Below are positions 1,073 through 20,163 of a DNA stretch of 20,163 nt, one piece after another; position 1 is the first letter of the stretch, and every line of letters starts with the position of its first letter. The DNA is from a virus. Below the pieces are notes generated by a model, which saw only the letters and a program-made list of their open reading frames with translations, was not told the DNA's origin and searched no databases. The position numbers were made by a program, and so were the translations under genes. Location of the stretch: the IMG/VR virus record IMGVR_UViG_3300005664_000140, positions 1-20,163 of that record; one strand, written 5' to 3'.

Positions 1073-1429
1073 ATGAGCGAAACTGGAAATCAGCCAGAAA
1101 ACAGAAAGCCGTGGCAGTTCCAGCCGGGACAATCTGGGAACCCTAGCGGGAGGCCGAAGGGAACGGTTTCGCTGACCAACTTGCTTCGGAAAAAGCTGCT
1201 TGAAGGAACCTGCGCGCAGGACGTGATCGACGCGACGATTCGTGACGCGCTCGCTGGTGATGCCGCTGCCCGAAAGCTGGTCTGGGAGCGCATGGAAGGG
1301 CTTTTAACTCAACCCGTGAACATCAATTTCGCAGGGAAGCCCGCGGACGAACTCACGGACGCCGAACTCCTTGAGATGTCCACCGCGTTGAACGCAAGTG
1401 ACGACGATGCTGACCCAAACGCTGACTGA
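1073..1429 (+). CDS. Small-terminase-like DNA-binding protein (DUF5681-type N-terminus)
   Basis: The start at ATG 1073 is chosen because residues from here on look like a known family: an N-terminal WQFQPGQSGNPSGRPKG stretch (residues 14-30) followed by a helical region (LTNLLRKKLLE). This KPGQSGNPxGRPKG signature is that of DUF5681-type phage proteins, which commonly precede the terminase large subunit and are presumed to recognise DNA. The GRPKG core (26-30) resembles an AT-hook. The C-terminus is acidic (ADELTDAELLEM to DDDADPNAD), which may contact the large subunit. The product is 118 residues, short for a classical small terminase. The gene overlaps the next one by 23 bases (or 32 with the GTG start). 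The in-frame extension to ATG 809 would add 88 residues of non-protein-like sequence and is rejected. The role as small terminase is inferred from family and neighbour. Confidence 0.7.
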   Translation: MSETGNQPENRKPWQFQPGQSGNPSGRPKGTVSLTNLLRKKLLEGTCAQDVIDATIRDALAGDAAARKLVWERMEGLLTQPVNINFAGKPADELTDAELLEMSTALNASDDDADPNAD

Positions 1430-2198
1430 GGCACAACGCGCAGAAGCGCGCCGAATCCTCGCGAACGAAGCGCGGCGGCGAGGGCTTGCACTCCAAACAG
1501 CGGCAGAACTTGCAACCCGCCCGTTGTGGCCGCCGAAGTTTTGCCATCCTCATGCGCGATCGGCATGGGCGTTTGTCCAGCATTTGCGAACGTGGAACGA
1601 GGCCGAGCAAGCCGTTCAGCCGTTCCCCGACAAGGCGTACTTGCGCAAGTGGACGCGGGAATGGGTGCGGTGTTGGCGGCGCGGTCAACCGCTCATCATC
1701 GAGAAGTCCAGGCGGCTCGTAGCATCGTGGCTGTTCCGTGCGCTTGAGCTTTGGGCACTGGGCTTGCGGCGCGGCGATTGGATCATCGCTCACCTGACGA
1801 ACGAAGATGCGGCCGGCCACGTGTGGAGAATTTTCCACCTGTACGACGACCTTCGAAAGCGGTTCCCGTCGTGGAGGCTTGCGATGGCTACGACGTGGGG
1901 AAACGAACTTTCGTACAAGCTCGATTCACTGGCACTCCCGAACGGTTCGAAGGTCGAAAAGCACTACGATGCCGCCGACGCGTTGCAGGGATCGGGATAC
2001 GCGGGAATCACCGCCGAAGAGCTTTCAAAGTACCGCCATCCTTCGGCGTTTTGGAGCCAAGCGGCGTTCATCACGCAAGGAAGCGCGGGCGGCAAAAACG
2101 GCTTCATGTGCGCAATCACGAACTCTGACCCAGATCCGAACTGGCGCGAAATCAAGGACTTTCTGAACGCCCGCGACTTGCTTGGATTTAATTCCTGA
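1407..2198 (+). CDS. Terminase large subunit, ATPase half (separate gene)
   Basis: The 263-residue product matches the N-terminal packaging-motor ATPase of tailed phages. It has a Walker A-like segment IIEKSRRLVASW (about residues 97-108) and, after an interdomain region, a Walker B-like GITAEELSKY (about 200-209) with two acidic residues (204-205) where the catalytic Glu is expected. The family translocates DNA into the prohead. The Walker A loop reads SRRLVAS where relatives usually have a Gly (SRRxGxS). The protein stops at TGA 2196-2198 just after the ATPase domain, and the nuclease domain begins in the next gene with a TGATG overlap. So the subunit is either naturally split or carries a frameshift. 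An alternative GTG start lies at 1398 in the same frame. Neither start has a good ribosome site, and coupling to the overlapping upstream gene is likely. Confidence 0.8.
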   Translation: MLTQTLTEAQRAEARRILANEARRRGLALQTAAELATRPLWPPKFCHPHARSAWAFVQHLRTWNEAEQAVQPFPDKAYLRKWTREWVRCWRRGQPLIIEKSRRLVASWLFRALELWALGLRRGDWIIAHLTNEDAAGHVWRIFHLYDDLRKRFPSWRLAMATTWGNELSYKLDSLALPNGSKVEKHYDAADALQGSGYAGITAEELSKYRHPSAFWSQAAFITQGSAGGKNGFMCAITNSDPDPNWREIKDFLNARDLLGFNS

Positions 2199-3034
2199 TG
2201 GAAGGTATCGCCGTTGCCACACTCGCGAACGGAACGCGGTACATGGCTTCGCATTATTCGTGCGACCCCGAAAAAGACGCGGCATGGGTGCTCAAAAACA
2301 AGCGAGGCGGCGCGCGCGAATGGAACCGCGAGATGGAGCTTTACGAGGATGTTTACGACGGCGAACCCGTCCACTCCGATTACTCCAAAAAACTGCACTG
2401 GCAAGCGGGACCGATTGAGCCAAAGCGAGACTCGATTTACGTAAGCGGAACCGACTGCGGTCAAACTCTGGAACCCGCTCACATCTTGCTGGAAATCTCT
2501 TTCAAGCCGGTCTCAGTCAAAGCGATTCTCGAAGTCTTGCCGGTCGTTGCCGGTGAATCGATGAAGACGTTCGGCCCGGCGATCCTCGACGCCTTGGCAA
2601 ACAGAATTCCCGGCCAGTGGCAATCGGTCGAGCACTGGGCCGACGCGACGGTCACGACCCGCAGCGGAACGAACGGCGAATCCGCACAAGACGAAGCCGC
2701 CAAGGTTGGGCTGAATCTTCGCCAAAGCACGAACGTTTGGGAAGTTCGCAAGTCTGCCGTAACGTGGCTTCTCACCGAGCGAAACGAAAACGACGAACCG
2801 ATTTTCACCCTCGATGCCGCAAGTTGTCCAAGACTCGCTCAAGCACTCGCGGGAGCTTACAAGTACGAAGAAGGCGGCGATGCAACTGGCCCCGGCCGCG
2901 TGATTCGAAAGCCTCTCAAGAATGGCTGGTCACACGTTGCCGACGCGTTCCAATATGCCGCGATAGCCGCCCGAATCCGGCTTAGTGGCGCGAAACAATC
3001 CACCACCCACAAGCGGCGCGGCTCGTGGGCCTAA
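2198..3034 (+). CDS. Terminase large subunit, nuclease half (separate gene)
   Basis: ATG 2198 overlaps the stop of the ATPase gene (TGATG). In this frame a TAA lies at 2189-2191, so there is no longer upstream extension. The 278-residue product has the RNase H-like layout of the terminase C-terminal nuclease. The first acidic site is in SGTDCGQ (Asp about 86), the second in HWADATV (Asp about 149) and the third in HVADAFQY (Asp about 249), the last matching the xxHxxDAxxY ending typical of TerL. This domain cuts concatemeric DNA during packaging; metal ions are expected to be held by these aspartates. It presumably associates with the separate ATPase product. The C-terminus is basic (KRRGSWA). 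The next gene follows after 16 bases, or overlaps if the portal uses the GTG at 2985. Confidence 0.8.
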   Translation: MEGIAVATLANGTRYMASHYSCDPEKDAAWVLKNKRGGAREWNREMELYEDVYDGEPVHSDYSKKLHWQAGPIEPKRDSIYVSGTDCGQTLEPAHILLEISFKPVSVKAILEVLPVVAGESMKTFGPAILDALANRIPGQWQSVEHWADATVTTRSGTNGESAQDEAAKVGLNLRQSTNVWEVRKSAVTWLLTERNENDEPIFTLDAASCPRLAQALAGAYKYEEGGDATGPGRVIRKPLKNGWSHVADAFQYAAIAARIRLSGAKQSTTHKRRGSWA

Positions 3035-3050
3035 CGAAGCACTTTTACCC

Positions 3051-4607
3051 ATGGAATCCTCCACTGCCCGCAGATCGAGACTTGCCAGTAGCCTTATTGG
3101 CTGTCCGAATGAACCGGCAGGGTTCAGCGGGCAATGGAACCTTGGGCGCGAGGCGTACGCGTACCATCTTTTGAACCCGTACCCGTTCTTCCACTTTCAG
3201 GATTGGAAGACCGAGGAACGCGGCCCACTTCCAAAGGCGATGCCGATCGCGCGAGATATTGCGCGAAAGGGCGCTCAGTGGCTTTTCGGTGTTTCACCCG
3301 CGCTCACTGCCGAAAACAAGAAAATCGAGGAAGCGATCAACGTCATATGGCAGCTCAACATGATGCCGCAGCGCATGGTTCGCTTTGCTGAGAATGGCGC
3401 GGTCTGGGGCGGTTACTGCCTCAAATTCAGCTACGACCAAGAAGACCCCAAGAAGGTCACGATTTCAACCCACAACGCCTCGAAGGACTGCCAACTTTTT
3501 TACGATTACCACGACCGTACGCGGCTCTTGATGGCGCGAATCCAGTACCGATACTTCGACGCGGTGAATGGTGATTACTACTGGCACCGCGAGGAATGGA
3601 CGGACGCCGAATTTGTCCAGTACGAGCCGGTGAAGCACGAAAACGCCGCCAACACGATCGAGAACCCGTACGACCTCATCAAAGCCCCGCCAAACGAGAA
3701 GTGGCAGATCCAGAGCCGCGAACCCAACCAGTTTCAGGTCATCCCGGTCCAGTACGTGCGCAACATGGAAACCGAATCCCAGTGGGGCGAGGGCGACTGC
3801 TGGGCGATTTGGCGAGTCCTTGACCGAGTGAACCTCACGTACCACTTGATGGACCGCTCGAACCAGTTCGATTCGGAGCCAAACAAGGTCTACATCGACG
3901 TCAAGGAAGGCCAAGAGTTGGTTGATCGGCCCATGACTCCCGGCGAAGTCGAGAGCGTTGAAAGTTCGAACGACAAGGGCGCAAAGGTCCAGTTATTGGA
4001 GCCAGGCGGCAACCTTCGACCGGCGATGATGGAGTACGCGCGGGAACTCACGCGGCAAATCTACTCGGCTTGCGGCTCGGTGGACATCGATGGCGCGGCG
4101 GTCACGAACAAAGGCTCGATGACGACCGCGGTCATGCACCAAATGTACGCCCCGCTGATTAACACCACTCGCGAAAAGCGGAAGTTGTACGGCGAGGATG
4201 GAATTGCCAAGTTCCTCGAGCTGATGTGCATCGGACTCAAGAATGTCGGGCGCGAACCCGCATTCAGCAGTGTCAACCCTTCGAAGATCGATACCTACAA
4301 CGTGACGACGGTTTGGCCTGACTTCTTCAACCTGACCCCCGAAGAGCGGCAAATCGTAACGCAGACGACGTGCGAGCAATTTGATGCAGGATTCCTGAGC
4401 CGTGAAATGGCGGTCGAGCGAATCGCCTCAATCGAGGGCATAGACAACACCGCACTACTTTTGGAGCAACTAAATGCAGAAAGCGCAAACGAAGACACCG
4501 ACGACGGCGACGACACCGACACCCCCGTCGACCCCGGCACCGACCCCGCCGAAGGAAAGCAAAGCCCCAAGCCTCGAAAGGGCAAAGTCGACACTGGCGC
4601 GGAATGA
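3051..4607 (+). CDS. Portal protein (SPP1 gp6-like)
   Basis: The product of about 518 residues is close in length to SPP1-type portals. It contains the characteristic N-terminal wing region (ARDIARKGAQWLFGVSPAL), the tract around RFAENGAVWGGYCLKFSY, and a C-terminal clip/crown region with YARELTRQIYSACGSVDIDG. Portals form the 12-subunit ring at one capsid vertex through which DNA enters and the tail attaches. The tail end, from about 4490, is very acidic and Thr/Pro/Asp-rich (DTDDGDDTDTPVDPGTDP). That is probably because a second gene is read from the same DNA in another frame. ATG 3051 gives a 16-base gap from the nuclease gene; GTG 2985 in the same frame would add 22 residues. Neither has a clear ribosome-binding sequence. 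Confidence 0.85.
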   Translation: MESSTARRSRLASSLIGCPNEPAGFSGQWNLGREAYAYHLLNPYPFFHFQDWKTEERGPLPKAMPIARDIARKGAQWLFGVSPALTAENKKIEEAINVIWQLNMMPQRMVRFAENGAVWGGYCLKFSYDQEDPKKVTISTHNASKDCQLFYDYHDRTRLLMARIQYRYFDAVNGDYYWHREEWTDAEFVQYEPVKHENAANTIENPYDLIKAPPNEKWQIQSREPNQFQVIPVQYVRNMETESQWGEGDCWAIWRVLDRVNLTYHLMDRSNQFDSEPNKVYIDVKEGQELVDRPMTPGEVESVESSNDKGAKVQLLEPGGNLRPAMMEYARELTRQIYSACGSVDIDGAAVTNKGSMTTAVMHQMYAPLINTTREKRKLYGEDGIAKFLELMCIGLKNVGREPAFSSVNPSKIDTYNVTTVWPDFFNLTPEERQIVTQTTCEQFDAGFLSREMAVERIASIEGIDNTALLLEQLNAESANEDTDDGDDTDTPVDPGTDPAEGKQSPKPRKGKVDTGAE

Positions 4608-4758
4608 CGATGGCGAGATTGTCATCGATGGCCCCGCTGACTCGCTTGTCTTCGTCGGATACCCATTCTCAAAAGCGGACGGTTTCGCGCTTGGCCTGAC
4701 GCATCTCGGGCATGATCCCGTGACCGACTGCGACGTTTTTGAAGCCCGTTCCAAGTAG
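4474..4758 (+). CDS. Small protein overprinted on the portal 3' end, unknown function
   Basis: ATG 4474 is preceded by GGAG at 4463-4466 with a 7-base spacer, one of the better ribosome sites in the window, and lies inside the portal gene. The first 134 bases overlap the portal in another frame. There the new protein is Thr/Pro/Lys-rich (TPTTATTPTPPSTPAPTPP) while the portal is Asp/Thr-rich. The non-overlapping part (about residues 45-94) looks folded: GEIVIDGPADSLVFVGYPF, then GFALGLTHLGHDPVTDCDVF. I do not recognise this domain. Its place between portal and scaffold suggests a head-assembly accessory or minor capsid role, by position only. The flexible N-terminal tail could tether it to a partner. 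Confidence 0.75.
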   Translation: MQKAQTKTPTTATTPTPPSTPAPTPPKESKAPSLERAKSTLARNDDGEIVIDGPADSLVFVGYPFSKADGFALGLTHLGHDPVTDCDVFEARSK

Positions 4759-4765
4759 CAAAACG

Positions 4766-4795
4766 CCGACCTGTGGCGGCTGATCCCACAGAGAC
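4766..4795 (+). promoter_or_regulatory. RNA hairpin element upstream of scaffold (copy 1)
   Basis: CTGTGG (4771-4776) pairs with CCACAG (4786-4791) around the loop CGGCTGATC. It is flanked by CCGAC before and AGAC after. The same architecture, with flanks CCGACCTG and CAGAGAC and loop CGGTTAAT, occurs at 5404-5430 ahead of the capsid gene, but with a different stem. There is no T-run, so it is not a terminator. It lies 7 bases ahead of the scaffold start codon and could control translation or RNA processing. Confidence 0.5.
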
Positions 4796-4801
4796 ACAAT
4801 C

Positions 4802-5347
4802 ATGAGCGAAACACCCACACCACAGACTCCGGCTGTTAACCCGGAAGTACAAGACAATTCAGCGATCCGCGAAATGCGGGCTAAGATCGAGTCCGAGGCA
4901 ACGGCGCGAAAAGCCGCCGAAACCGAGGCCGCCGAGCTGAAAACCCGACTCACGGAAATTGAGCGTTCAAAGCTCGATGAGCTGGAGCGCGTTCGACTTG
5001 AAAAAGAAGACCTCGCGAAAACTTTCGGACAAACCCAAAGCGAGCTTGAGCAGGCCAGGAATGAACTAGGCCAGTTCCAGACGCTTGCTGAGGCTGAATA
5101 CAACCAGCTTCTTGCGACGGTTCCACCCGAGAAGCGCGCGGCCGTTGAAGGAATCGCAGGATCGGGCACATGGGCTGACCGGCTTTCAAAGGCTCGAAGT
5201 GCCATGTCGCTGATCGGCGCGGCTCCCGTGCAAGTCGGAACACCCGGAATGCCGCCAGCATCGGCCCCGACTGTCACGCCAGGAACGCCGGAACCGTTCA
5301 AGTTCGACACATCGAATCCATACGCTGGCACGTACAGCAAGAAGTAA
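4802..5347 (+). CDS. Capsid scaffold protein
   Basis: The 181-residue product has a long, highly charged coiled-coil segment (about residues 20-95: REMRAKIESEATARKAAE, then ELKTRLTEIERSKLDELERV). A Pro/Gly/Thr-rich linker (GTPGMPPASAPTVTPGTP) and a short C-terminal tail (FDTSNPYAGTYSKK) follow. This is the usual build of a phage scaffolding protein, which guides capsid protein assembly and leaves the prohead. Its place between portal and major capsid protein fits SPP1-like head clusters. No protease signature is present in it or nearby, so capsid maturation probably does not need a dedicated prohead protease. Start ATG 4802 has only a weak GAGA upstream, but a hairpin element lies just ahead. 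Confidence in function comes from coiled coil plus context. Confidence 0.8.
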   Translation: MSETPTPQTPAVNPEVQDNSAIREMRAKIESEATARKAAETEAAELKTRLTEIERSKLDELERVRLEKEDLAKTFGQTQSELEQARNELGQFQTLAEAEYNQLLATVPPEKRAAVEGIAGSGTWADRLSKARSAMSLIGAAPVQVGTPGMPPASAPTVTPGTPEPFKFDTSNPYAGTYSKK

Positions 5348-5403
5348 TTTTCTTCCTACTGGCCCCCTTGCGCCACGCCTAAAAGCAAGAGTTCTCGTCA
5401 TCC

Positions 5404-5430
5404 CCGACCTGCGCGGTTAATCGCAGAGAC
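5404..5430 (+). promoter_or_regulatory. RNA hairpin element upstream of major capsid gene (copy 2)
   Basis: CTGCG (5409-5413) pairs with CGCAG (5422-5426) around the loop CGGTTAAT. Flanks CCGAC (5404-5408) and AGAC (5427-5430) are the same as in the copy at 4766-4795. The stem bases differ between copies but both remain paired, which is compensatory change. It sits about 20 bases ahead of the strong ribosome site of the capsid gene. Confidence 0.5.
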
Positions 5431-5448
5431 TCGCCCTTTGACCTTTTT

Positions 5449-5453
5449 GGAGG
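5449..5453 (+). promoter_or_regulatory. Strong ribosome binding site of the capsid gene
   Basis: GGAGG at 5449-5453 lies 9 bases before ATG 5463 and follows a T-run. It is the strongest such site in the window and fits the high copy number needed for the major capsid protein. It also fixes the capsid start. Confidence 0.8.
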
Positions 5454-5462
5454 TTTCTCACT

Positions 5463-6473
5463 ATGGCGGTCTCAGCTTCCGCTTTAACACTCGCACAGTG
5501 GGCTTTTCAGTCCAACGACCCGCTTATCAACGCGATTACGTTTTCGCTTTACAAGTCGGGTTCAGTTCTTCAAGACATCCCGTTCGCGAACCGAAAAACC
5601 ATGATGGTTAACGGCACCCGCTGGACGGGCGCACTTCCGACTGTCAACTGGTCGAAGATCAACGTTGACCCCGTTGTCACCAGCGGCACCCCTGCTGCCT
5701 ACTCCGAGTCTGCGTTCATCGTGCGCAACGCGATCGACGTCGACAAGGTTCTGGTTGAGGATGAAAACAACATCATCGACCCGCGCGAGGCTCAGGTTGA
5801 GGCATGGATGCAGGGTTACGCGTACGACGTGAACGACAAGTTCATCAACAACACCCACGCCACGGGCAACGTTGATGCGTTTGTTGGTCTTCGCTCCCGA
5901 CTCGACAACCCCACGGACTGGGGAATGCCGACGACCACGAAGATTGACGCCGGTGGTGTCAACCTTTCGGACGGCAACATCACGGCCGCAAACGCCAACT
6001 CATTTATCATGAAGGTGCAAAGCCTCCTTGATTCGATGGGAGCGTTCGACGGTGACGATGTGACCCTCTACATGAACGCAGATATGCGCCGACGATTTGA
6101 GGCGGCGGTTCGCGTTCTTGGTGCGGGCGGCGGTTGGGACATGACCCGGGACGCTTACGGGCGGTCCGTGGCTTTGTACCGAAACGCCAAGATCCGATAC
6201 ATCGGCCGAAAGGCTGACCAGACGACGGAGATCATCACCTCGACGGAAACCGCTGCAGGCGTGAACGGTGCAAGCACCTTTACGAGCATCTACGCGGTCA
6301 AGTACGGGATGACGGACTTCTTCGGTTGGCAATTTGAGCCGCTATCCGCGAAAGATATTGGCCTGATTGGTAACGGCGGTTCGACATACCGGACGGTCAT
6401 CGATCACGTTTACGGTCTCGTAGAGGCAAACGTGTACTCGATCGGTCGTCTCTACGACATCAAGGTGGCTTAA
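5463..6473 (+). CDS. Major capsid protein (HK97-fold type)
   Basis: The 336-residue product resembles tailed-phage major capsid proteins of HK97 fold. An N-terminal segment (QSNDPLINAITFSLYKSGSV) is followed by PFANRKTMMVNGTRWTGALP, a VDVDKVLVEDENN-like helix entry, and the GYAYDVNDKFINNTHATGNVDAFVGL motif that in relatives reads FFNGD...FdGL. A later part, VTLYMNADMRRRFEAAVR, leads to the end VEANVYSIGRLYDIKVA. It forms the icosahedral shell. There is no long N-terminal delta domain, consistent with the separate scaffold gene. GGAGG nine bases upstream and placement after the scaffold support the call. The next gene starts after only 5 bases. Confidence 0.85.
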   Translation: MAVSASALTLAQWAFQSNDPLINAITFSLYKSGSVLQDIPFANRKTMMVNGTRWTGALPTVNWSKINVDPVVTSGTPAAYSESAFIVRNAIDVDKVLVEDENNIIDPREAQVEAWMQGYAYDVNDKFINNTHATGNVDAFVGLRSRLDNPTDWGMPTTTKIDAGGVNLSDGNITAANANSFIMKVQSLLDSMGAFDGDDVTLYMNADMRRRFEAAVRVLGAGGGWDMTRDAYGRSVALYRNAKIRYIGRKADQTTEIITSTETAAGVNGASTFTSIYAVKYGMTDFFGWQFEPLSAKDIGLIGNGGSTYRTVIDHVYGLVEANVYSIGRLYDIKVA

Positions 6474-6478
6474 CGAAA

Positions 6479-6856
6479 ATGGCAGGTGATGCTAACTTAA
6501 TCCTTCTGGCCTCCACCGCTTTGACCGCAACGGGTCAGGCGACGGGCCTCCTTCTCCGCAAGCCGTCTTCGAGCGGCACCAACCAAGGCGGCACTGTTCG
6601 GCGCGGCATGAAAGCCCGCGTGACGGTGACGCTGGTCAGCGGAACGACTCCCACGTGTGCGTTTGTGATTCAGCACTCGGACGACGATTCGACCTACACC
6701 GATCTTGCGACTTGTCTCACGGCAAGCGTAACGGCAGCGGGCGAATACTTCATCCCGTTTGAAACCTCAAAGGCATACGTCCGGTTGAAGTACACGATTG
6801 CGGGCACAACCCCGTCGTTCACAACTCAAGCCGACATCACAATGGGCCGTCCATAA
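6479..6856 (+). CDS. Probable head decoration protein (Bbp16-like)
   Basis: The 125-residue product is predicted to be all beta: an N-terminal MAGDANLILLASTALTATG, then RRGMKARVTVTLVSG, FVIQHSDDDSTYTDLATC, and the end YVRLKYTIAGTTPSFTTQADITMGRP. This pattern, including the xVxVExSDDxxxYTDLA strand turn and the YVRLxYTI strand, is common in small phage proteins encoded just after the capsid protein (Bbp16-type and similar decoration proteins) that trim or stabilise the capsid lattice. It follows the capsid stop by 5 bases, so it is probably translated from the same message. A weak AAGGTGG about a dozen bases upstream may serve as ribosome site. The exact family is inferred. Confidence 0.7.
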   Translation: MAGDANLILLASTALTATGQATGLLLRKPSSSGTNQGGTVRRGMKARVTVTLVSGTTPTCAFVIQHSDDDSTYTDLATCLTASVTAAGEYFIPFETSKAYVRLKYTIAGTTPSFTTQADITMGRP

Positions 6857-6870
6857 GGGCACCCATAGCC

Positions 6871-6918
6871 ATGACACGGGGCTTTGTACCGTGTCCCCAA
6901 GATTTAGGCCATGTCTGA
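6871..6918 (+). CDS. Possible 15-residue leader peptide ahead of the connector gene
   Basis: ATG 6871 opens a 15-codon frame (MTRGFVPCPQDLGHV) that ends at TGA 6916-6918, five bases past the ATG (6911) of the connector gene. The frame spans the hairpin at 6873-6895. Such an arrangement could couple translation across the 54-base gap, but the ribosome site (AAGGG about 12 bases upstream) is weak. The frame may be chance. Confidence 0.25.
   Translation: MTRGFVPCPQDLGHV
6873..6895 (+). promoter_or_regulatory. Hairpin between decoration and connector genes
   Basis: GACACGG (6873-6879) pairs with CCGTGTC (6889-6895) around the loop GGCTTTGTA. No T-run follows, so it is not a standard terminator. 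Part of its loop, GGCTTTGT, recurs in the terminator hairpin at 19494-19518. A role in setting the ratio of head to connector proteins, or in message stability, is possible. Confidence 0.45.
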
Positions 6919-7579
6919 TTACACCGCTTACCCGACCACTGCCGACGTGAATATTGCCATCGCTGCGGCGGGATCGTCGTATGACAACGACCCGTTTACA
7001 GCGGACAAGCTTGCGTCGGTCATCAGCATGGTCGAGAAGGAAACCGGCCGATCCTTCCCAACATCGGCAAGCGCGGCGCGATACTTCCACGGCAACGGAT
7101 ACGGCGAGATGGTGATCGATGAATTCATCGCCATTAGTGAAATCACGCTGATCGGCTACTACGGCAACGCGTCGGGAATTGCACTGGCAAACGCTCAAGG
7201 TATCGAGCGGCAAGGCGGTCCGAACAATCGAATCATCGTCCGAAAAGGCTCCTACCCATCTTTTGGCCTCGGCTTCGTCAATACGTTTCCCAAAGGCCGC
7301 GATAACATCAAGGTGACGGCAACGTGGGGCTACTCGCTCGACTGGACTGACCTTTGGGACGCGATTCGCGACGAAGCCGCGGCTCAGTGCTTACGATTCA
7401 GCGAGTACAACCCAGGCGGCAAGATGACGGGCTGGAAAGAGGCCGACGTGACCGAGAATTACACGGGCGACTATGCGGACGTGATCCTCAACAGCTCCAA
7501 ACGGCTCCAAACAGCGATTGAGCGACACAAGCGCAAGGGGCAAGTGATTCGGTCCCGCAACTCTCGGAGCATGATCTAA
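6911..7579 (+). CDS. Head-tail connector (adaptor) protein
   Basis: The 222-residue product begins with a typical connector N-terminus: YPTTADVNIAIAAAG, then a helix-rich ADKLASVISMVEKETGRSF. This resembles the adaptor family that binds under the portal (HK97 gp6 / SPP1 gp15 type), in which a region like TxADVxxxL is followed by a helix containing E(K)xTGR. The middle part is strand-rich (MVIDEFIAISEITLIGYYG, KVTATWGYS) and the C-terminal part has the DAIRDEAAAQCLRFSEYNPG helix. The length is larger than the minimal family. It lies straight after the capsid/decoration genes and is followed by a stopper-like gene with no gap (TAA directly followed by ATG). The function is inferred from sequence pattern and gene order. 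Confidence 0.7.
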   Translation: MSDYTAYPTTADVNIAIAAAGSSYDNDPFTADKLASVISMVEKETGRSFPTSASAARYFHGNGYGEMVIDEFIAISEITLIGYYGNASGIALANAQGIERQGGPNNRIIVRKGSYPSFGLGFVNTFPKGRDNIKVTATWGYSLDWTDLWDAIRDEAAAQCLRFSEYNPGGKMTGWKEADVTENYTGDYADVILNSSKRLQTAIERHKRKGQVIRSRNSRSMI

Positions 7580-7996: not shown

Positions 7997-8451
7997 GCGC
8001 ATACAGCACATTCCGCGACGAATTGAAGACGGCGATCCTTGCCGCGTGGTCTGACATCAACGGCTCAGTGTCGTACTTCTCGGACTTCCAGGGCGCGAGT
8101 CAGAACATCTTGAATCTGCCAAAGCCTTGCGCGGTGGTCTTGTGTGGTCGCTTGGAGGATGACAACAACTGGGGGCTTGCAAGTGCTCGGCAAGCGCGCG
8201 TTCCGCTGTCGATTTACTACCTGTCGGGCAAGGCGGCGACGGTGGACTTCCAGCAGTTCATCAATGACAAGATGGAAACGCTCCAAACGGCACTTCTTGG
8301 AGGCTCGTACACTACTTTTCGGGTGATGGTGGACCGGGGGCTGATCGACACGACAAGCGCGAACCCGGCGAACCAATTCCTGCTTGAGCAACAGCAACAG
8401 ACGCGCGCGGGATTGCTCGAGTACTCCGACATAGCGGTCGCGATGGTATGA
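7993..8451 (+). CDS. Tail terminator / tail completion-like protein
   Basis: The start is a TTG at 7993 overlapping the upstream stop (TTGA), and it is well supported by AGGAG at 7981-7985 with a 7-base spacer. The 152-residue product has an N-terminal helix (YSTFRDELKTAILAAWSDI), alternating strands (KPCAVVLCGRLE, ARVPLSIYYLSGKA) and a helix FQQFINDKMETLQTALLG. That fits the alpha/beta tail terminator fold, in which the protein caps the tail tube and docks to the head. Position between stopper and HK97-gp10-like gene supports this. The family was not matched by motif, so the function is mostly contextual. The stop overlaps the next ATG (ATGA). Confidence 0.6.
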   Translation: MSAYSTFRDELKTAILAAWSDINGSVSYFSDFQGASQNILNLPKPCAVVLCGRLEDDNNWGLASARQARVPLSIYYLSGKAATVDFQQFINDKMETLQTALLGGSYTTFRVMVDRGLIDTTSANPANQFLLEQQQQTRAGLLEYSDIAVAMV

Positions 8452-8891
8452 GACCAAGCGCGGCGGCTTCTCAAATTCGGCGCATCAAGGGCGCGGCCGA
8501 TAACGCGACAAAGCGCGGGCTGGATCGTGCCAGCCGCGAGATGGTCGTTTACGCTCACAAACTATCAAGCGGCACGTACAAGCTCTCTGCGCAGAGGAAA
8601 GCAGACCACCCTTACGCAACTCGGCACGGATCGCAACAAACGCTGAGTGGGCTGATTAACCGGCAAAGCGGGGCGTTTTACCGCTCTTGGCGAATGAAGA
8701 AAATCACCACGGCGTTCAGCAGCCAGCCGGTGTACATCATGGAGAACCTAACGAGCTACTCCGAGTTCGTCATTTTCGGAACTCCGAAGATGGTCGCACG
8801 GCGAATCGATTTGAACATTCAGAAGCGTTGGGCCGAAATCGCCCCGCGATACGTTGAGGCAGAAATCAACAAGCTAGGGTTAGGCAAATGA
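8448..8891 (+). CDS. HK97 gp10-like tail component
   Basis: The 147-residue product starts at ATG 8448 on the previous stop (ATGA). It has a basic helix-rich N-terminus (SQIRRIKGAADNATKRGLDRASREMVVYAHKLSSG). The middle holds SGAFYRSWRMKK and AFSSQPVYIMENLTSYSEFVIFGTPKMVARR. The part YxxxvE.G..M..R at the end is the usual ending of HK97-gp10-type proteins (here YSEFVIFGTPKMVARRIDLNIQKRW). These proteins occur between connector and tail tube genes in siphoviruses and are thought to act at the head-tail joint or the tail top. No neck passage or cofactor site is visible. The stop overlaps the start of the following small gene (ATGA). Confidence 0.65.
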   Translation: MRPSAAASQIRRIKGAADNATKRGLDRASREMVVYAHKLSSGTYKLSAQRKADHPYATRHGSQQTLSGLINRQSGAFYRSWRMKKITTAFSSQPVYIMENLTSYSEFVIFGTPKMVARRIDLNIQKRWAEIAPRYVEAEINKLGLGK

Positions 8892-9046
8892 CACCAGACA
8901 ACAAACCAGAGGTTTTCATCGGTTCCCAAACACGGGGCATCTACTTTGATGGGCACGGCAATCGTGTCACGGAGTTCGGTAAGCCGATCCCCACTGACCC
9001 AGAGCCGGAGCCGAAGCCGGAAGAAACTCAAGACGGCAAGGAGTAA
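8888..9046 (+). CDS. Small acidic protein, 52 aa, unknown
   Basis: ATG 8888 overlaps the previous stop (ATGA), so translation is likely coupled. The product has 52 residues. A short possibly folded part (VFIGSQTRGIYFDGHGNRVTEF) is followed by a Pro/Glu tail (PTDPEPEPKPEETQDGKE) typical of flexible linkers. It ends 6 bases before the tail tube gene. AAGGAG at its 3' end (9038-9043) serves as the ribosome site of that gene. Tight packing between two tail genes and the overlap argue that it is real. I do not recognise a family, and no function can be assigned. Confidence 0.65.
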   Translation: MTPDNKPEVFIGSQTRGIYFDGHGNRVTEFGKPIPTDPEPEPKPEETQDGKE

Positions 9047-9052
9047 CGCAAA

Positions 9053-9511
9053 ATGGCAACAATTCCCCTTTGGCTCTTAGGCCGTCACTTGACATCGGTG
9101 ACCCTAATCCCCCAGACCGCCAACGCCACAACCGGCGTCTTGTCGGCGGGCACAACGCAAACCCTCACCGTGGTTACCAAGAGCATCACGATTCGCCGGG
9201 AGCCTCAGTCTGAGGATATTCGGCCGGTAAATTCGACGGTGGTCAACAACGTGAACCACTCCGACGATTCCACGCTCGACCTGACGATTCTCTTGCGGCA
9301 AGGCGTAGGCTCAATTGACCGCAACCAGATCGAAACTGCAATCGCGGTTTCGGATTACTTCCAGGCCAACTTCACATCAGGGGCCAAGACGTGGAGTGGG
9401 TACTTTATTCGCGGATCTTCGGTAGACGGTGTGACGAATTACGGCGCAAACGAGGCCACAATCACACTTCGGCAGATCGACGCGGGCACCGCTACCCCGA
9501 CGTACACCTAA
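9053..9511 (+). CDS. Probable major tail (tube) protein
   Basis: ATG 9053 follows AAGGAG (9038-9043) with a 9-base spacer. The 152-residue product is rich in beta strands and Thr: an N-terminal HLTSVTLIPQTANATTG, then KSITIRREPQSEDIRPVN, a middle STLDLTILLRQGVGSIDRNQIETA, and the end YGANEATITLRQIDAG. The final GAxEATITLRxI strand and the SDYFQANFTSGAKTWSGYFIRG middle match the pattern of siphovirus tube proteins, where hexamers stack to make the tail. Position right ahead of the tail assembly chaperones is the normal one for this gene. It is shorter than many tube proteins, so a minor tail role is the alternative. Confidence 0.65.
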   Translation: MATIPLWLLGRHLTSVTLIPQTANATTGVLSAGTTQTLTVVTKSITIRREPQSEDIRPVNSTVVNNVNHSDDSTLDLTILLRQGVGSIDRNQIETAIAVSDYFQANFTSGAKTWSGYFIRGSSVDGVTNYGANEATITLRQIDAGTATPTYT

Positions 9512-9514
9512 AGC

Positions 9515-10060
9515 ATGGAAAAGCTCAACGTATACACGCTCAAGAGGCCGGCCGTTCCGGTCTCTGAGCGCACTTTTGGCGAAGGTGAAAAGAGTTTCAC
9601 CGTTCAATTGAGGGCACTTGATGCGATCCAAGAACACGCGTTTGAGGAATTGGCCCGCGAGAATGTCGCGCAATGGCTCATCGGTATTCCTACTGGTGAG
9701 AAAGACAAGAACGGGGATGCAATTCGAGAGGTTGTACCATTCCCAGCCGTTCCGACCGAAACCGGGGAGCTTGACGTTGTTGAACTCAACGAACAAGCGA
9801 TCCGTGTCGCGACTCGGTTAGAGCTGATGCAACCCGAACGGGTCTACAACACCCAAGAGCTGCTCATTATTGCCGCCACAATGAGCAAGGAATTCAACGA
9901 ACTTGTCACCTTTGCGGCAGATGTCGAGTCAGGCGGTGGCGGCTTAAAAAAAGGTTCGGCGGCGAGTATGCCGGAATCGTCCGAATCTGCCTTGAATCCG
10001 GCGCCGGGCACCACCCTGAGCATATCCAGCGAGCCGACGAGCTGCTCCGATTGTGCCTAG
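9515..10060 (+). CDS. Tail assembly chaperone, short form (gpG-like)
   Basis: This is the unshifted product of 181 residues. It begins 3 bases after the tube gene and has a helical, chaperone-like body: FGEGEKSFTVQLRALDAIQEHAFEELA, VELNEQAIRVATRLELMQPE, then YNTQELLIIAATMSKEFNELVTFA. Position before the tape measure fits the lambda gpG family, whose members keep the tape measure protein soluble and bring tube subunits. After the slippery A-run (9946-9952) the zero frame goes on for about 35 residues of Ser/Pro-rich sequence (SAASMPESSESALNPAPG), which looks unconstrained. The -1 frame holds the better protein. Both forms are expected to be made. Confidence 0.7.
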   Translation: MEKLNVYTLKRPAVPVSERTFGEGEKSFTVQLRALDAIQEHAFEELARENVAQWLIGIPTGEKDKNGDAIREVVPFPAVPTETGELDVVELNEQAIRVATRLELMQPERVYNTQELLIIAATMSKEFNELVTFAADVESGGGGLKKGSAASMPESSESALNPAPGTTLSISSEPTSCSDCA

Positions 10061-10224
10061 ACCAGCTTCGAGCGATTGCGCGACGGCTTAAGGCTGACGA
10101 AGCCCCAACACTTCCCGCGCTTGGTGATAGTTGGATTCAAGACATCGCAGGAATGGAGCTTTTGAGGCGGGAGCGCGAGGTCAGCGCGAGTGAGGATTTT
10201 GACGGCCCGCTTGGTGATTACTAA
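9515..10224 (+). CDS. Tail assembly chaperone, -1 frameshift product (gpGT-like)
   Basis: A -1 slip on A AAA AAA (9946-9952) moves ribosomes into the frame starting AGG at 9952. That frame is open for 90 codons to TAA 10222-10224 and gives a product of about 236 residues. The extension reads like a real protein: EYAGIVRICLESGAG, ELLRLCLDQLRAIARRL, and an acidic end EDFDGPLGDY. It has no ATG until late and no ribosome site of its own, so frameshifting is the only simple way to express it. In lambda-like phages the long form links the chaperone to both tape measure and tube protein. Without this reading, the 160 bases after 10060 would be noncoding. Confidence 0.75.
9946..9952 (+). other. Programmed -1 frameshift site (A AAA AAA)
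   Basis: Seven A in the phase N NNN NNN with zero-frame codons TTA AAA AAA GGT meet the X XXY YYZ rule (A AAA AAA). Two bases downstream a 6-bp hairpin can form (9955-9960 with 9970-9975, one G-U pair, 9-base loop). This is the usual layout of a stimulated slip site in tail chaperone genes. Confidence 0.75.
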
Positions 10225-10239
10225 AAGCCGTTGTACAAT
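10211..10239 (+). promoter_or_regulatory. Sigma-70-like promoter of the lipoprotein gene
   Basis: TTGGTG (10211-10216) and TACAAT (10234-10239) are spaced by exactly 17 bases. The -10 box matches the consensus at 5 of 6, the -35 box at 3 of 6 (the TTG). TTGTACAA (10231-10238) over the -10 box is an 8-bp palindrome, which could be an operator. The expected start point, 6-8 bases after the -10 box, falls on or next to ATG 10246. Confidence 0.5.
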
Positions 10240-10245
10240 GGGCTG

Positions 10246-10806
10246 ATGCGAGTCTTTTTACTTGCCATGCTCACAATTGGCTTGATTGGCTGCTCCCCGC
10301 TTGAAACGCGGACGGAAACGACCACTCCGAGCCGGACCAAGAGCGCAGCGGAACCGTTCAGCCAACCGAAAGTAGACGGTATTCAGTCGAGGCGCGCGCC
10401 AAGGCCGATGCCGCCATCGGTTGAGCAGGTGCGGGAGCCGGAACCGGCGCGAAGTGTTGCGGTTGACCAAGAGTTGGCGGCACTTGTGGCGAAGTACAAC
10501 GATGCGCTTGACAAGTACGTACGGTTTTGTCACAAATCCCTAGCGGACGCGCTAAGAGAGATTTGGAAGGGTGGTGCAAAGAGCGATTCCGGCAACGATG
10601 CCGTGATAAGGGCCACTCTGGATTCGCAGAAAATGATTATGCAACGGGGTGACCTGAAGCTGATGGAATCCGAAATTAGGCATCACCCACGGTTTAGCGA
10701 TTACAAGCCTAGCGAAGAGATCATCATCAAGATCAAGCCCGAGGAAATGGGAACTCCTTGGGGCGATCAGGCATCAATTGAGTTCCGCTACTACGACTTG
10801 AAGTAA
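10246..10806 (+). CDS. Phage-encoded lipoprotein (moron candidate)
   Basis: ATG 10246 is preferred over TTG 10231 because it starts a clean lipoprotein signal peptide: Arg 2, a hydrophobic run VFLLAMLTIGL, then the lipobox LIGC with the lipidated Cys at residue 16, followed by Ser. In an outer-membrane host, Ser at +2 would favour the outer membrane. Residues 17-65 are a Thr/Ser/Arg/Pro-rich linker. About residues 70-186 form a charged, mostly helical domain (ELAALVAKYNDALDKYVRF to SIEFRYYDLK) that I do not recognise. The gene has a promoter-like sequence directly before it, no ribosome site, and a strong terminator after it. It sits between the tail chaperones and the tape measure, which are normally adjacent. 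Superinfection exclusion or another surface change of an infected host is a fair guess; a spanin is unlikely given size and position. Confidence 0.8.
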   Translation: MRVFLLAMLTIGLIGCSPLETRTETTTPSRTKSAAEPFSQPKVDGIQSRRAPRPMPPSVEQVREPEPARSVAVDQELAALVAKYNDALDKYVRFCHKSLADALREIWKGGAKSDSGNDAVIRATLDSQKMIMQRGDLKLMESEIRHHPRFSDYKPSEEIIIKIKPEEMGTPWGDQASIEFRYYDLK

Positions 10807-10830
10807 AGATTTACCCATTCTTTCCAGACC

Positions 10831-10856
10831 GCCACAGTGCCCGCTGTGGCTTTTTT
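10831..10856 (+). terminator. Strong intrinsic terminator after the lipoprotein gene
   Basis: GCCACAG (10831-10837) pairs perfectly with CTGTGGC (10844-10850) around the loop TGCCCG, and six T follow (10851-10856). It lies 25 bases after the lipoprotein stop and only 20 bases before the tape measure start. It shares GGCTTTTTTGTTGC (10848-10861) with the terminator at 915-938. Confidence 0.8.
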
Positions 10857-10876: not shown

Positions 10877-12163
10877 ATGGCTGTTCAAATTGTTCTCGAT
10901 ACCGTAGACGCTCAAGCGTTCGCGGGGCTGGATCGTCTTGCCAAAAAGCTCGACGACCTGGACGCCAAGGTAAAGAATCTCGGACAGTCGTTTGCGGCTC
11001 CAAAGCTGACGGCGGTCACGGGAGGCCAAGGGTATTCGAGCAGGGGGCGGGCGGCTGACGGCATGGTCGGCCCGTTTCGAAGAGCTGCGCGGGCACAAGA
11101 GGAACTCAACAAGGCGATTGCATCGGGAGACGCGCTTCGCTTAGGTGATGCGCTATTCAACGCCGACAAAGCCGAGGCCGCACTCGCAAGAGCCACGAAG
11201 CCGAAGTCCAGCGCGTTCATGAATGCAGTGGCGAGCACTCGGTTTGGGCAGGGTGCAGACGGCAAAATCGGGATGTTCCCACTTATTGGGCGAACTGCGG
11301 CCGCGCTTGGTTCAGCGGGCACAATCGCGGCGGCAGGAATCGGCGCGGCTTACTCATCCATGAATTCATCGGGCGAAAGCGTCCGCAACTTCACCAACTC
11401 GTACTACCGAGGCGGCGGCGGTCCCAACACTGGCAAGGGGCTTGCGATAGGGGGATTCGCGGGGACCGACGCGGCAAGTGATGCCGTCTCGCTTGGCGAC
11501 AAATTGCGCTCGGGCGGGATCGGCGCGTCATACCTTCGCGGTAAAGGCGTGATTGACCTCGGCTTCAAGACGGTCGACAAGATGTCCAACCTTACCAAGG
11601 CCATTGAGGAACTCGCGAAGATTCAGGACGAAAACACCCGAATCATGGTGGCCCGTGACGTTGGGCTGGAAGGGTATTTGCGCTTCACTGACGCAAGCCC
11701 CAACGCGCAAGAGAGGCTCAAGAATTCATTCGGTCAACGAAGCAAAGCCGATATGAAGATTAACGCCGAATTTGACACCTTTTGGGAGACCGCTAAAAAC
11801 CGATTCGGCAACGCCCAAGACGCCATGTGGACGGGGATCAAGAAGCCGTTCGCGGACATGAGCGCGGGCAATTTTGGCACCGCGATACTCGGCACGATGA
11901 TTAACGGCATTGTCGGCCCCGTGATTGGCGGGTTCATCAATCGCGCACTCCCGTTCTCAAACGATGATGGCTCAGGCGGCAAGAAATCGGGCACGAAGGA
12001 AGTCGTTGACGCAGTGAAGGATATGCACCGCACGATGAAGGAAGGACGCGACGGCGTTGGTTCGATGTCGGGGAGGGCACTTGGCGCGATTCCTGCAGCT
12101 TGGCGAATGCAAATGGCCGATGAAGCGATTCGGCTCCAATCGATGCACTTAGGCTCCTACTGA
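10877..12163 (+). CDS. Tape measure protein (short)
   Basis: The 428-residue product has the marks of a tape measure: an N-terminal helical part with regular charge (LDRLAKKLDDLDAKVKNLG), Ala-rich helices (DALFNADKAEAALARA) and two hydrophobic Gly/Ala segments able to cross a membrane. These are about residues 135-160 (LIGRTAAALGSAGTIAAAGIG) and about 335-360 (ILGTMINGIVGPVIGGF). The protein sets tail length and helps DNA entry. By the usual relation of about 1.5 angstrom per residue it would give a tail near 60-65 nm, which is short. Position after the chaperones, although parted from them by a lipoprotein gene, supports the call. The start ATG 10877 has no ribosome site. The stop overlaps the next gene as TGATG. 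Confidence 0.7.
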   Translation: MAVQIVLDTVDAQAFAGLDRLAKKLDDLDAKVKNLGQSFAAPKLTAVTGGQGYSSRGRAADGMVGPFRRAARAQEELNKAIASGDALRLGDALFNADKAEAALARATKPKSSAFMNAVASTRFGQGADGKIGMFPLIGRTAAALGSAGTIAAAGIGAAYSSMNSSGESVRNFTNSYYRGGGGPNTGKGLAIGGFAGTDAASDAVSLGDKLRSGGIGASYLRGKGVIDLGFKTVDKMSNLTKAIEELAKIQDENTRIMVARDVGLEGYLRFTDASPNAQERLKNSFGQRSKADMKINAEFDTFWETAKNRFGNAQDAMWTGIKKPFADMSAGNFGTAILGTMINGIVGPVIGGFINRALPFSNDDGSGGKKSGTKEVVDAVKDMHRTMKEGRDGVGSMSGRALGAIPAAWRMQMADEAIRLQSMHLGSY

Positions 12164-19493: not shown

Positions 19494-19518
19494 GCCTCGG
19501 CTTTGTCCGGGGCTTTTT
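19494..19518 (+). terminator. Intrinsic terminator after the large tail gene
   Basis: GCCTCGG (19494-19500) pairs with CCGGGGC (19507-19513), with one G-U pair, around CTTTGT, and five T follow (19514-19518). It ends the tail transcription unit before the last, partial gene. Confidence 0.75.
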
Positions 19519-19546: not shown

Positions 19547-20163
19547 ATGGCAGACCTCACACTCCAGTATCCGACACAGCGCGGCATCAGCGTCCCCACG
19601 ACGCCCGTGTCGCTTTATTCTTTTGGCGACGTTGGGGTCAAAACGATCCGCGTCAACAACCTAAGCGGGAGCACGATCCGCATCCTCGCTTACCCGACGA
19701 ACACCGTCACAGATCCGGCCTCGTACACCGAAATGGGTGCCGGTGGTGATGGGGCGATTCGGTACACCGCCGTCGTTGGTGATAGTGCATCGTTTACCGT
19801 TGTAGGCGAGTGGGAAGTTTGGGTATGCGCGGCAACGGCAACGGCGACTATCAACGCGGTCGCTACTCCGATTGTTCCCGCGCAAACGCTCGCTCAGTCA
19901 AACGCGGCGCAAATGCTCGGCACACCGGAAGCCCAAGAGTTATTCCAGTTGCTCTCGGACACCTCGCTCGGAATCATCGGGTTCATGGTCCCAGGCGTTG
20001 GCGTTTGGAAAGAGAACGCGAAAACCTCAACCGCAAGCGCGGACGGCGATGCCGTCGCTTATATGATGAACTGGGCGAACCCTACAAATTCGTTCTTTTC
20101 TTCAAACGGCTCCGGTGCGGCGAGTGACGCGAACGCGGCAATCCTGAAGACGGGAAGCAATGG
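19547..20163 (+). CDS. Phage structural protein, partial (runs off window end)
   Basis: ATG 19547 opens a frame with no stop to the window end, giving at least 205 residues. The N-terminal part is strand-rich and neutral (LTLQYPTQRGISVPTT, VKTIRVNNLSGSTIRILAYP, SFTVVGEWEVWVCAATATATINAV). A helical piece, AQTLAQSNAAQMLGTPEAQELFQLLSD, follows. The last part (ASADGDAVAYMMNWANPTNSFFSSNGSG) resembles the entry of a LamG/concanavalin-like domain found in phage fibre proteins (DGDxVxxWxDxSGNGN...), though this likeness is weak. It lies after a terminator and has no clear promoter or ribosome site in the 28-base gap. It probably belongs to the receptor-binding region. Confidence 0.65.
   Translation, partial: MADLTLQYPTQRGISVPTTPVSLYSFGDVGVKTIRVNNLSGSTIRILAYPTNTVTDPASYTEMGAGGDGAIRYTAVVGDSASFTVVGEWEVWVCAATATATINAVATPIVPAQTLAQSNAAQMLGTPEAQELFQLLSDTSLGIIGFMVPGVGVWKENAKTSTASADGDAVAYMMNWANPTNSFFSSNGSGAASDANAAILKTGSN

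What the first reader, a model, noticed from the sequence alone, without database searches (positions are those of the whole stretch)
10211..10856. Self-contained lipoprotein cassette inserted between tail chaperones and tape measure
The sequence shows a promoter-like pair (TTGGTG, 17 bases, TACAAT), a lipoprotein gene with lipobox LIGC, and a perfect 7-bp hairpin with six T, all inside the late tail operon. In known siphoviruses the chaperone pair and tape measure gene are normally adjacent. Own promoter plus own terminator is the definition of a moron. Known phage lipoproteins such as Ltp of TP-J34 and Llp of T5 block superinfection, and Ltp acts on tape-measure-mediated DNA entry. By inference this gene, just ahead of the tape measure gene, may be a new exclusion lipoprotein expressed independently of the late genes. 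The soluble domain (about residues 70-186) was not recognised.
Basis: partly seen in the sequence, partly recalled or inferred. Interest (0 to 1): 0.75.

Follow-up and report, generated by a model that had tools for sequence, protein, structure and literature searches.

The report
Extra lipoprotein gene beside tail ruler
A phage carries one extra gene, for a membrane-anchored protein of unknown family, slotted with its own transcription stop signal between two tail genes that touch in its relatives; phage HK97 carries an unrelated gene that keeps out rival phages at exactly the same spot, so this is probably another member of a known kind of add-on gene.

Summary
A 186-codon lipoprotein gene (10246-10806, lipobox LIGC) lies between the -1 frameshifted tail chaperone (ends 10224) and the tape measure gene (starts 10877), followed by a strong intrinsic terminator (10831-10856). 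The terminator and lipobox are well beyond chance. The promoter is weaker: its -35 hexamer matches 3 of 6, it falls below the standard scan's threshold, and a similar or better site occurs in 3% of comparable stretches. In four relatives (three lineages) the chaperone and tape measure frames overlap or abut and the lipoprotein is absent, so it is an addition in this phage. HK97 has the same layout: its moron gene gp15, known to block superinfection, sits between chaperone and tape measure with a terminator after it, while HK022 and N15 lack it. The moron reading is therefore well supported and the site has a direct precedent. Superinfection exclusion is the best guess, not shown: the protein has no homologue in any collection searched, no Ltp, Bor or gp15 similarity, and a low-confidence predicted fold (flexible linker, helical hairpin, beta hairpin). 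New member of a known kind, modest interest.

The parts
9515..10060 (+). tail assembly chaperone, zero-frame product (181 aa)
   Evidence: 27-28% identical to the gene at the same place in L002; directly follows the tail tube gene
9946..9952 (+). A AAA AAA slippery heptamer for the -1 frameshift; the frameshifted frame runs to the stop at 10222-10224 (236-aa fusion)
   Evidence: frame analysis; the downstream frame has counterparts in L002, L010, L026 and L027
10199..10227 (+). second promoter-like pair TTGACG-17-TAAAAG
   Evidence: weight-matrix scan; weak
   Evidence: present; 3/6 and 5/6; fifth best on the + strand of the window; not significant in the consensus scan
10246..10806 (+). lipoprotein gene: signal peptide residues 1-15, lipidated Cys16, Pro/Ser/Thr-rich linker about 17-65, helical hairpin plus beta hairpin about 66-186
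   Evidence: translation, lipobox filter, codon usage, AlphaFold2 without alignment
10831..10856 (+). intrinsic terminator (7-bp perfect stem, 6-nt loop, T6)
10877..12163 (+). tape measure gene (428 aa)
   Evidence: position, weak alignment with L002 and Mae-JY24 counterparts

Best explanation
This is a moron: one lipoprotein gene with its own terminator (shown) and probably its own weak promoter (suggestive), added between the tail chaperone and tape measure genes of a siphovirus (shown by comparison). The most likely mechanism, all inferred: the protein is exported and lipidated at Cys16, stays on the host envelope through its lipid and a flexible linker of about 50 residues, and its helical domain interferes with DNA entry of superinfecting phages, possibly by binding the tape measure or its host partner as Ltp and HK97 gp15 do. 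The terminator keeps moron transcription out of the tape measure gene, while late transcription would read through it.
For: Absent from four relatives with overlapping or abutting junctions: L002 T stop 7128 / TMP start 7129, Mae-JY24 overlap 23 nt, L026 and L027 overlap 32-41 nt. Strong terminator exactly between gene and TMP. Promoter-like score 10.3 here and 8.7 upstream of HK97 gp15, but 2.2 and 4.9 at the uninterrupted junctions of L002 and Mae-JY24. HK97 record: gp15 'moron product' at 8203-8391 between the frameshift chaperone and gp16 TMP, putative terminator 8398-8422; HK022 and N15 lack it. HK97 gp15 and TP-J34 Ltp block DNA injection, and escape maps to tail or tape measure genes (PMC10883804). 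Ltp has the same three-part build: lipid anchor, spacer, active domain (PMC3952083).
Against: The promoter is not significant in the consensus scan. No homology to any exclusion protein. Terminators also occur elsewhere in late regions of this phage (19494-19513) and of HK97 and N15, so a terminator alone does not make an independent unit. No sign in the window of whether the phage is temperate. G+C and codon usage are not foreign. No expression data.
Confidence: 0.5

Rival explanations
1. Moron with another envelope role: a conversion lipoprotein that benefits the host cell (as Bor of lambda does) or alters the surface or receptor, not DNA entry.
For: Same anatomy; lipobox and disordered linker typical of envelope lipoproteins (weak N-terminal resemblance to RcsF, E 0.13).
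Against: No match to Lambda_Bor; position beside the tape measure gene is not needed for this.
Confidence: 0.25
2. A late-expressed lipoprotein of the lytic cycle, for example a lysis (outer-membrane spanin-like) or envelope-remodelling protein, or superinfection exclusion during lytic growth (T5 Llp-like); the terminator only tunes tape measure expression.
For: It lies co-oriented in the late region; the weak promoter and weak Shine-Dalgarno fit expression from upstream; PHROG Rz-like spanin is the third weak hit (E 0.34).
Against: Spanin lipoproteins are normally much shorter and sit in lysis cassettes (general knowledge); the strong terminator in front of the tape measure gene argues for a separate unit.
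Confidence: 0.18
3. Structural or assembly protein of this tail type, such as a chaperone-linked factor, that other relatives have lost.
For: Position among tail genes.
Against: Four relatives with the same tail module lack it; the signal peptide sends it out of the cytoplasm where tails assemble.
Confidence: 0.04
4. Spurious or decaying ORF with no function.
For: No homologue found in any collection.
Against: Codon usage, 186 open codons, lipobox, and terminator.
Confidence: 0.03

Closest known systems
HK97 gp15 moron (superinfection exclusion; YebO family)
   Same: Same junction (frameshift tail chaperone / tape measure), same orientation, terminator after it, promoter-like site before it, absent from related phages; membrane-associated product
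   Different: gp15 is a 62-aa membrane protein of the YebO family (PF13974); this is a 186-aa lipoprotein with no sequence similarity to it
Ltp of Streptococcus phage TP-J34 (PF07553)
   Same: Lipid anchor, spacer, soluble domain; reported target is the tape measure protein (PMC3952083)
   Different: No PF07553 match; Gram-positive surface lipoprotein; in TP-J34 the frameshift chaperone pair directly precedes the tape measure gene
Llp of T5 (superinfection exclusion lipoprotein)
   Same: Phage-encoded lipoprotein that acts in the envelope against superinfection (general knowledge)
   Different: Llp blocks the FhuA receptor and lies elsewhere in the genome (general knowledge); no match to a T5 record in the phage-wide protein search
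Lambda Bor (PF06291)
   Same: Moron lipoprotein
   Different: No profile match; Bor is much shorter and lies elsewhere (general knowledge)

Membership tests
phage moron | Extra gene absent from otherwise syntenic relatives | tested here: met
   L002, Mae-JY24, L026, L027 have overlapping or abutting chaperone/TMP junctions and no such gene
phage moron | Own transcription terminator | tested here: met
   10831-10856, expected 0.05 per strand
phage moron | Own promoter | tested here: inconclusive
   Two weak candidates; 3.2% of windows as good; below the consensus-scan threshold
phage moron | Transcribed independently of late genes and not needed for virion production | not testable with these tools
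   needs RNA and gene deletion
phage moron | Compositionally foreign insert (common, not required) | tested here: not met
   G+C 54.4% and GC3 63.1% within the phage range
bacterial-type lipoprotein | Signal peptide with lipobox and Cys | tested here: met
   MRVFLLAMLTIGLIGC; only such ORF in the window
Ltp superinfection exclusion family | PF07553 repeat domain | tested here: not met
   no match at E 10, none in the Pfam scan
HK97 gp15 / YebO family | Sequence similarity, PF13974 | tested here: not met
   no BLASTP alignment; no PF13974 match
superinfection exclusion protein | Expression alone blocks phage entry | not testable with these tools
   needs experiment

The most novel reading that the evidence does not exclude
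A new, unrelated class of tape-measure-directed exclusion lipoprotein that independently occupies the same genomic slot as HK97 gp15, implying that the chaperone/tape measure junction repeatedly collects entry-blocking morons in unrelated phages.
Probability: 0.25. Interest if true: 0.5.

Novelty: new member of a known kind. Interest (0 to 1): 0.33.

Why it matters
If it blocks DNA entry, it would be a second, unrelated protein at the site where HK97 carries its exclusion moron. That would suggest that the slot in front of the tape measure gene is a place to look for entry-blocking genes in unstudied phages, perhaps because exclusion gene and target are inherited together. As it stands it is one orphan gene with a good anatomical precedent.

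Tried and rejected
Homologue searches of the lipoprotein: IMG/VR contigs, the 70-kb relative G001, phages (only E 0.3 and 0.7), GTDB genomes, plasmids, PDB sequences, Pfam, PHROGs, NCBIfam and PADLOC: nothing. Fold searches: the full-length model is poor (pLDDT 63). The soluble part is better (pLDDT 74, pTM 0.61), but only one of five models is confident, and the matches are generic helical hairpins (SMAC, Vipp1, CHMP4B, seryl-tRNA synthetase), so nothing is concluded. A near-palindrome CCGTTGTACAATGG overlaps the -10, but it is single-copy in the window and by a rough estimate of mine some tens of equally good palindromes are expected in 20 kb. No flanking direct repeats mark the insertion. 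Portal relatives L013-L015, L018 and L023-L025 are too short or carry other tails to test the junction. The charge argument made for Ltp (acidic domain against basic tape measure end) does not carry over: the soluble domain is near neutral (19 K/R, 21 D/E).

Full report
What the window is. The window is a 20,163-base virus record from IMG/VR. It reads left to right as a siphovirus late region: the end of a DnaB-type helicase, a terminase-like region, an SPP1-type portal and a GP7-type major capsid protein, head completion genes, a tail tube gene (9053-9511), a tail chaperone (9515-10060), the lipoprotein gene, a tape measure gene (10877-12163), a tail tip gene and a large fibre-like gene.

Checking the observation. 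The chaperone has a canonical -1 slippery heptamer, A AAA AAA, at 9946-9952; the shifted frame runs to a stop at 10222-10224. The lipoprotein starts 22 bases later at ATG 10246 and ends at 10806. It is the only ORF of the window, in six frames, with a strict lipobox behind a charged N terminus, and its codon usage fits the phage in the annotated frame only. The hairpin at 10831-10850 with TTTTTT is the only terminator of its grade in the window, with 0.05 expected per strand and a folding energy of -13.8 kcal/mol. These parts are real.

The promoter is the weak part. TTGGTG matches the -35 consensus at three of six positions. The consensus scan does not report the pair, and that scan finds no more sites in the window than in shuffled sequence. 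A weight matrix is kinder: the site is fifth on the + strand of the window, and 3.2% of 165-base stretches hold one as good. A second candidate overlaps it. If the named pair is the promoter, the message would begin at about the start codon, and the start codon has little Shine-Dalgarno complementarity. I treat the promoter as plausible, not shown.

Is it an insertion? Relatives were found through the tail tube, the tail tip and the portal. Four share the tail module: L002 (a 70-kb IMG/VR contig), Microcystis phage Mae-JY24 (PP438416), and L026 and L027, which are 93% identical to each other, so three lineages. In L002 the chaperone frame stops at 7128 and the tape measure starts at 7129. In Mae-JY24 the two overlap by 23 bases, and in L026 and L027 by 32-41. 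None has a lipoprotein gene there, and L002's contig and Mae-JY24 show no convincing lipoprotein gene elsewhere. The window phage has 652 extra bases at this junction. The gene is therefore an addition, or was lost in three lineages, which is less economical. Its composition is not foreign, so it is not a very recent arrival from a different base composition.

Comparison with known systems. HK97 has the same layout. Its record lists gp15, 'moron product', at 8203-8391, between the frameshift chaperone (to 8145) and the tape measure gene (from 8435), with a putative terminator at 8398-8422. HK022 and N15 have no gene there. The same weight matrix gives 8.7 upstream of gp15 and 10.3 here, but only 2.2 and 4.9 at the uninterrupted junctions of L002 and Mae-JY24. 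HK97 gp15 and TP-J34 Ltp block DNA injection, and tape measure or tail changes escape them (PMC10883804). Ltp is built as lipid anchor, spacer and active domain (PMC3952083), which is the build predicted here.

Membership. The protein is not an Ltp (PF07553), not a Bor, and not similar to gp15, which is a 62-aa YebO-family protein. It has no homologue in phages, plasmids, IMG/VR contigs, GTDB species genomes or the PDB within the sensitivity of those tools. The contig and genome scans with a single protein find close relatives only.

Structure. Without an alignment AlphaFold2 gives a disordered linker to about residue 65, then a long antiparallel helical hairpin and a C-terminal beta hairpin. 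The soluble part reaches pLDDT 74 in one of five models, the others being poor. Fold matches are generic helical hairpins, and I draw no function from them.

Mechanism. Shown: an added lipoprotein gene with its own terminator at the chaperone/tape measure junction. Suggestive: its own promoter. Inferred: export and lipidation, tethering by the linker, and interference with the entry of other phages' DNA. I put the moron reading at about 0.8 and the exclusion function at about 0.45; the joint statement is scored 0.5 because most of what it asserts (the moron anatomy) is well supported. A benefit unrelated to entry is the main rival, followed by a role in the lytic cycle.

Verdict.

Noticed in passing
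window 1398-2198 and 2198-3034: The terminase large subunit appears split into two overlapping ORFs in different frames (ATPase-like half, nuclease-like half, by eye). It could be a true split or a frameshift in the assembly; neither half matches PHROG or Pfam terminases.
   Followed up: no
L003 8285-8929 (minus strand), Microcystis phage Mae-JY24 11843-12487: A reverse-strand gene sits on the other side of the tape measure gene, between it and the tail tip gene. It has an N-terminal zinc-ribbon-like stretch (DZR, E 0.013) and looks to have a membrane segment; it resembles a 'reverse moron'.
   Followed up: partly
L002 5475-5993 and 6001-6459: Two tandem tail-tube-like genes in a relative where the window phage has one.
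   Followed up: partly
window 19494-19513: A second good terminator-like hairpin after the fibre-like gene, in front of another ORF at 19547.
   Followed up: partly
window 8888-9046: A 52-codon ORF ending in an acidic proline-rich tail lies between the gene at 8448 and the tail tube gene; it may be a small gene missed by length cut-offs. L026 has a 48-aa ORF at the same place.
   Followed up: no
L016, L024, L025 against window 2985-7579: Portal, scaffold, capsid and head completion genes are shared (about 30-52% identity) with contigs that show no match to the window's tail genes; in L016 genes beyond the head differ, a mosaic boundary near window 7579.
   Followed up: no
window 10877-12163; L002 7129-7968; L026 13518-14789: The putative tape measure proteins are very short (428, 279 and 423 aa), which would mean unusually short tails if they are the rulers.
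   Followed up: no
window 10228-10241: Near-palindrome CCGTTGTACAATGG overlaps the -10 hexamer; it could be an operator but is single-copy and probably not beyond chance.
   Followed up: partly
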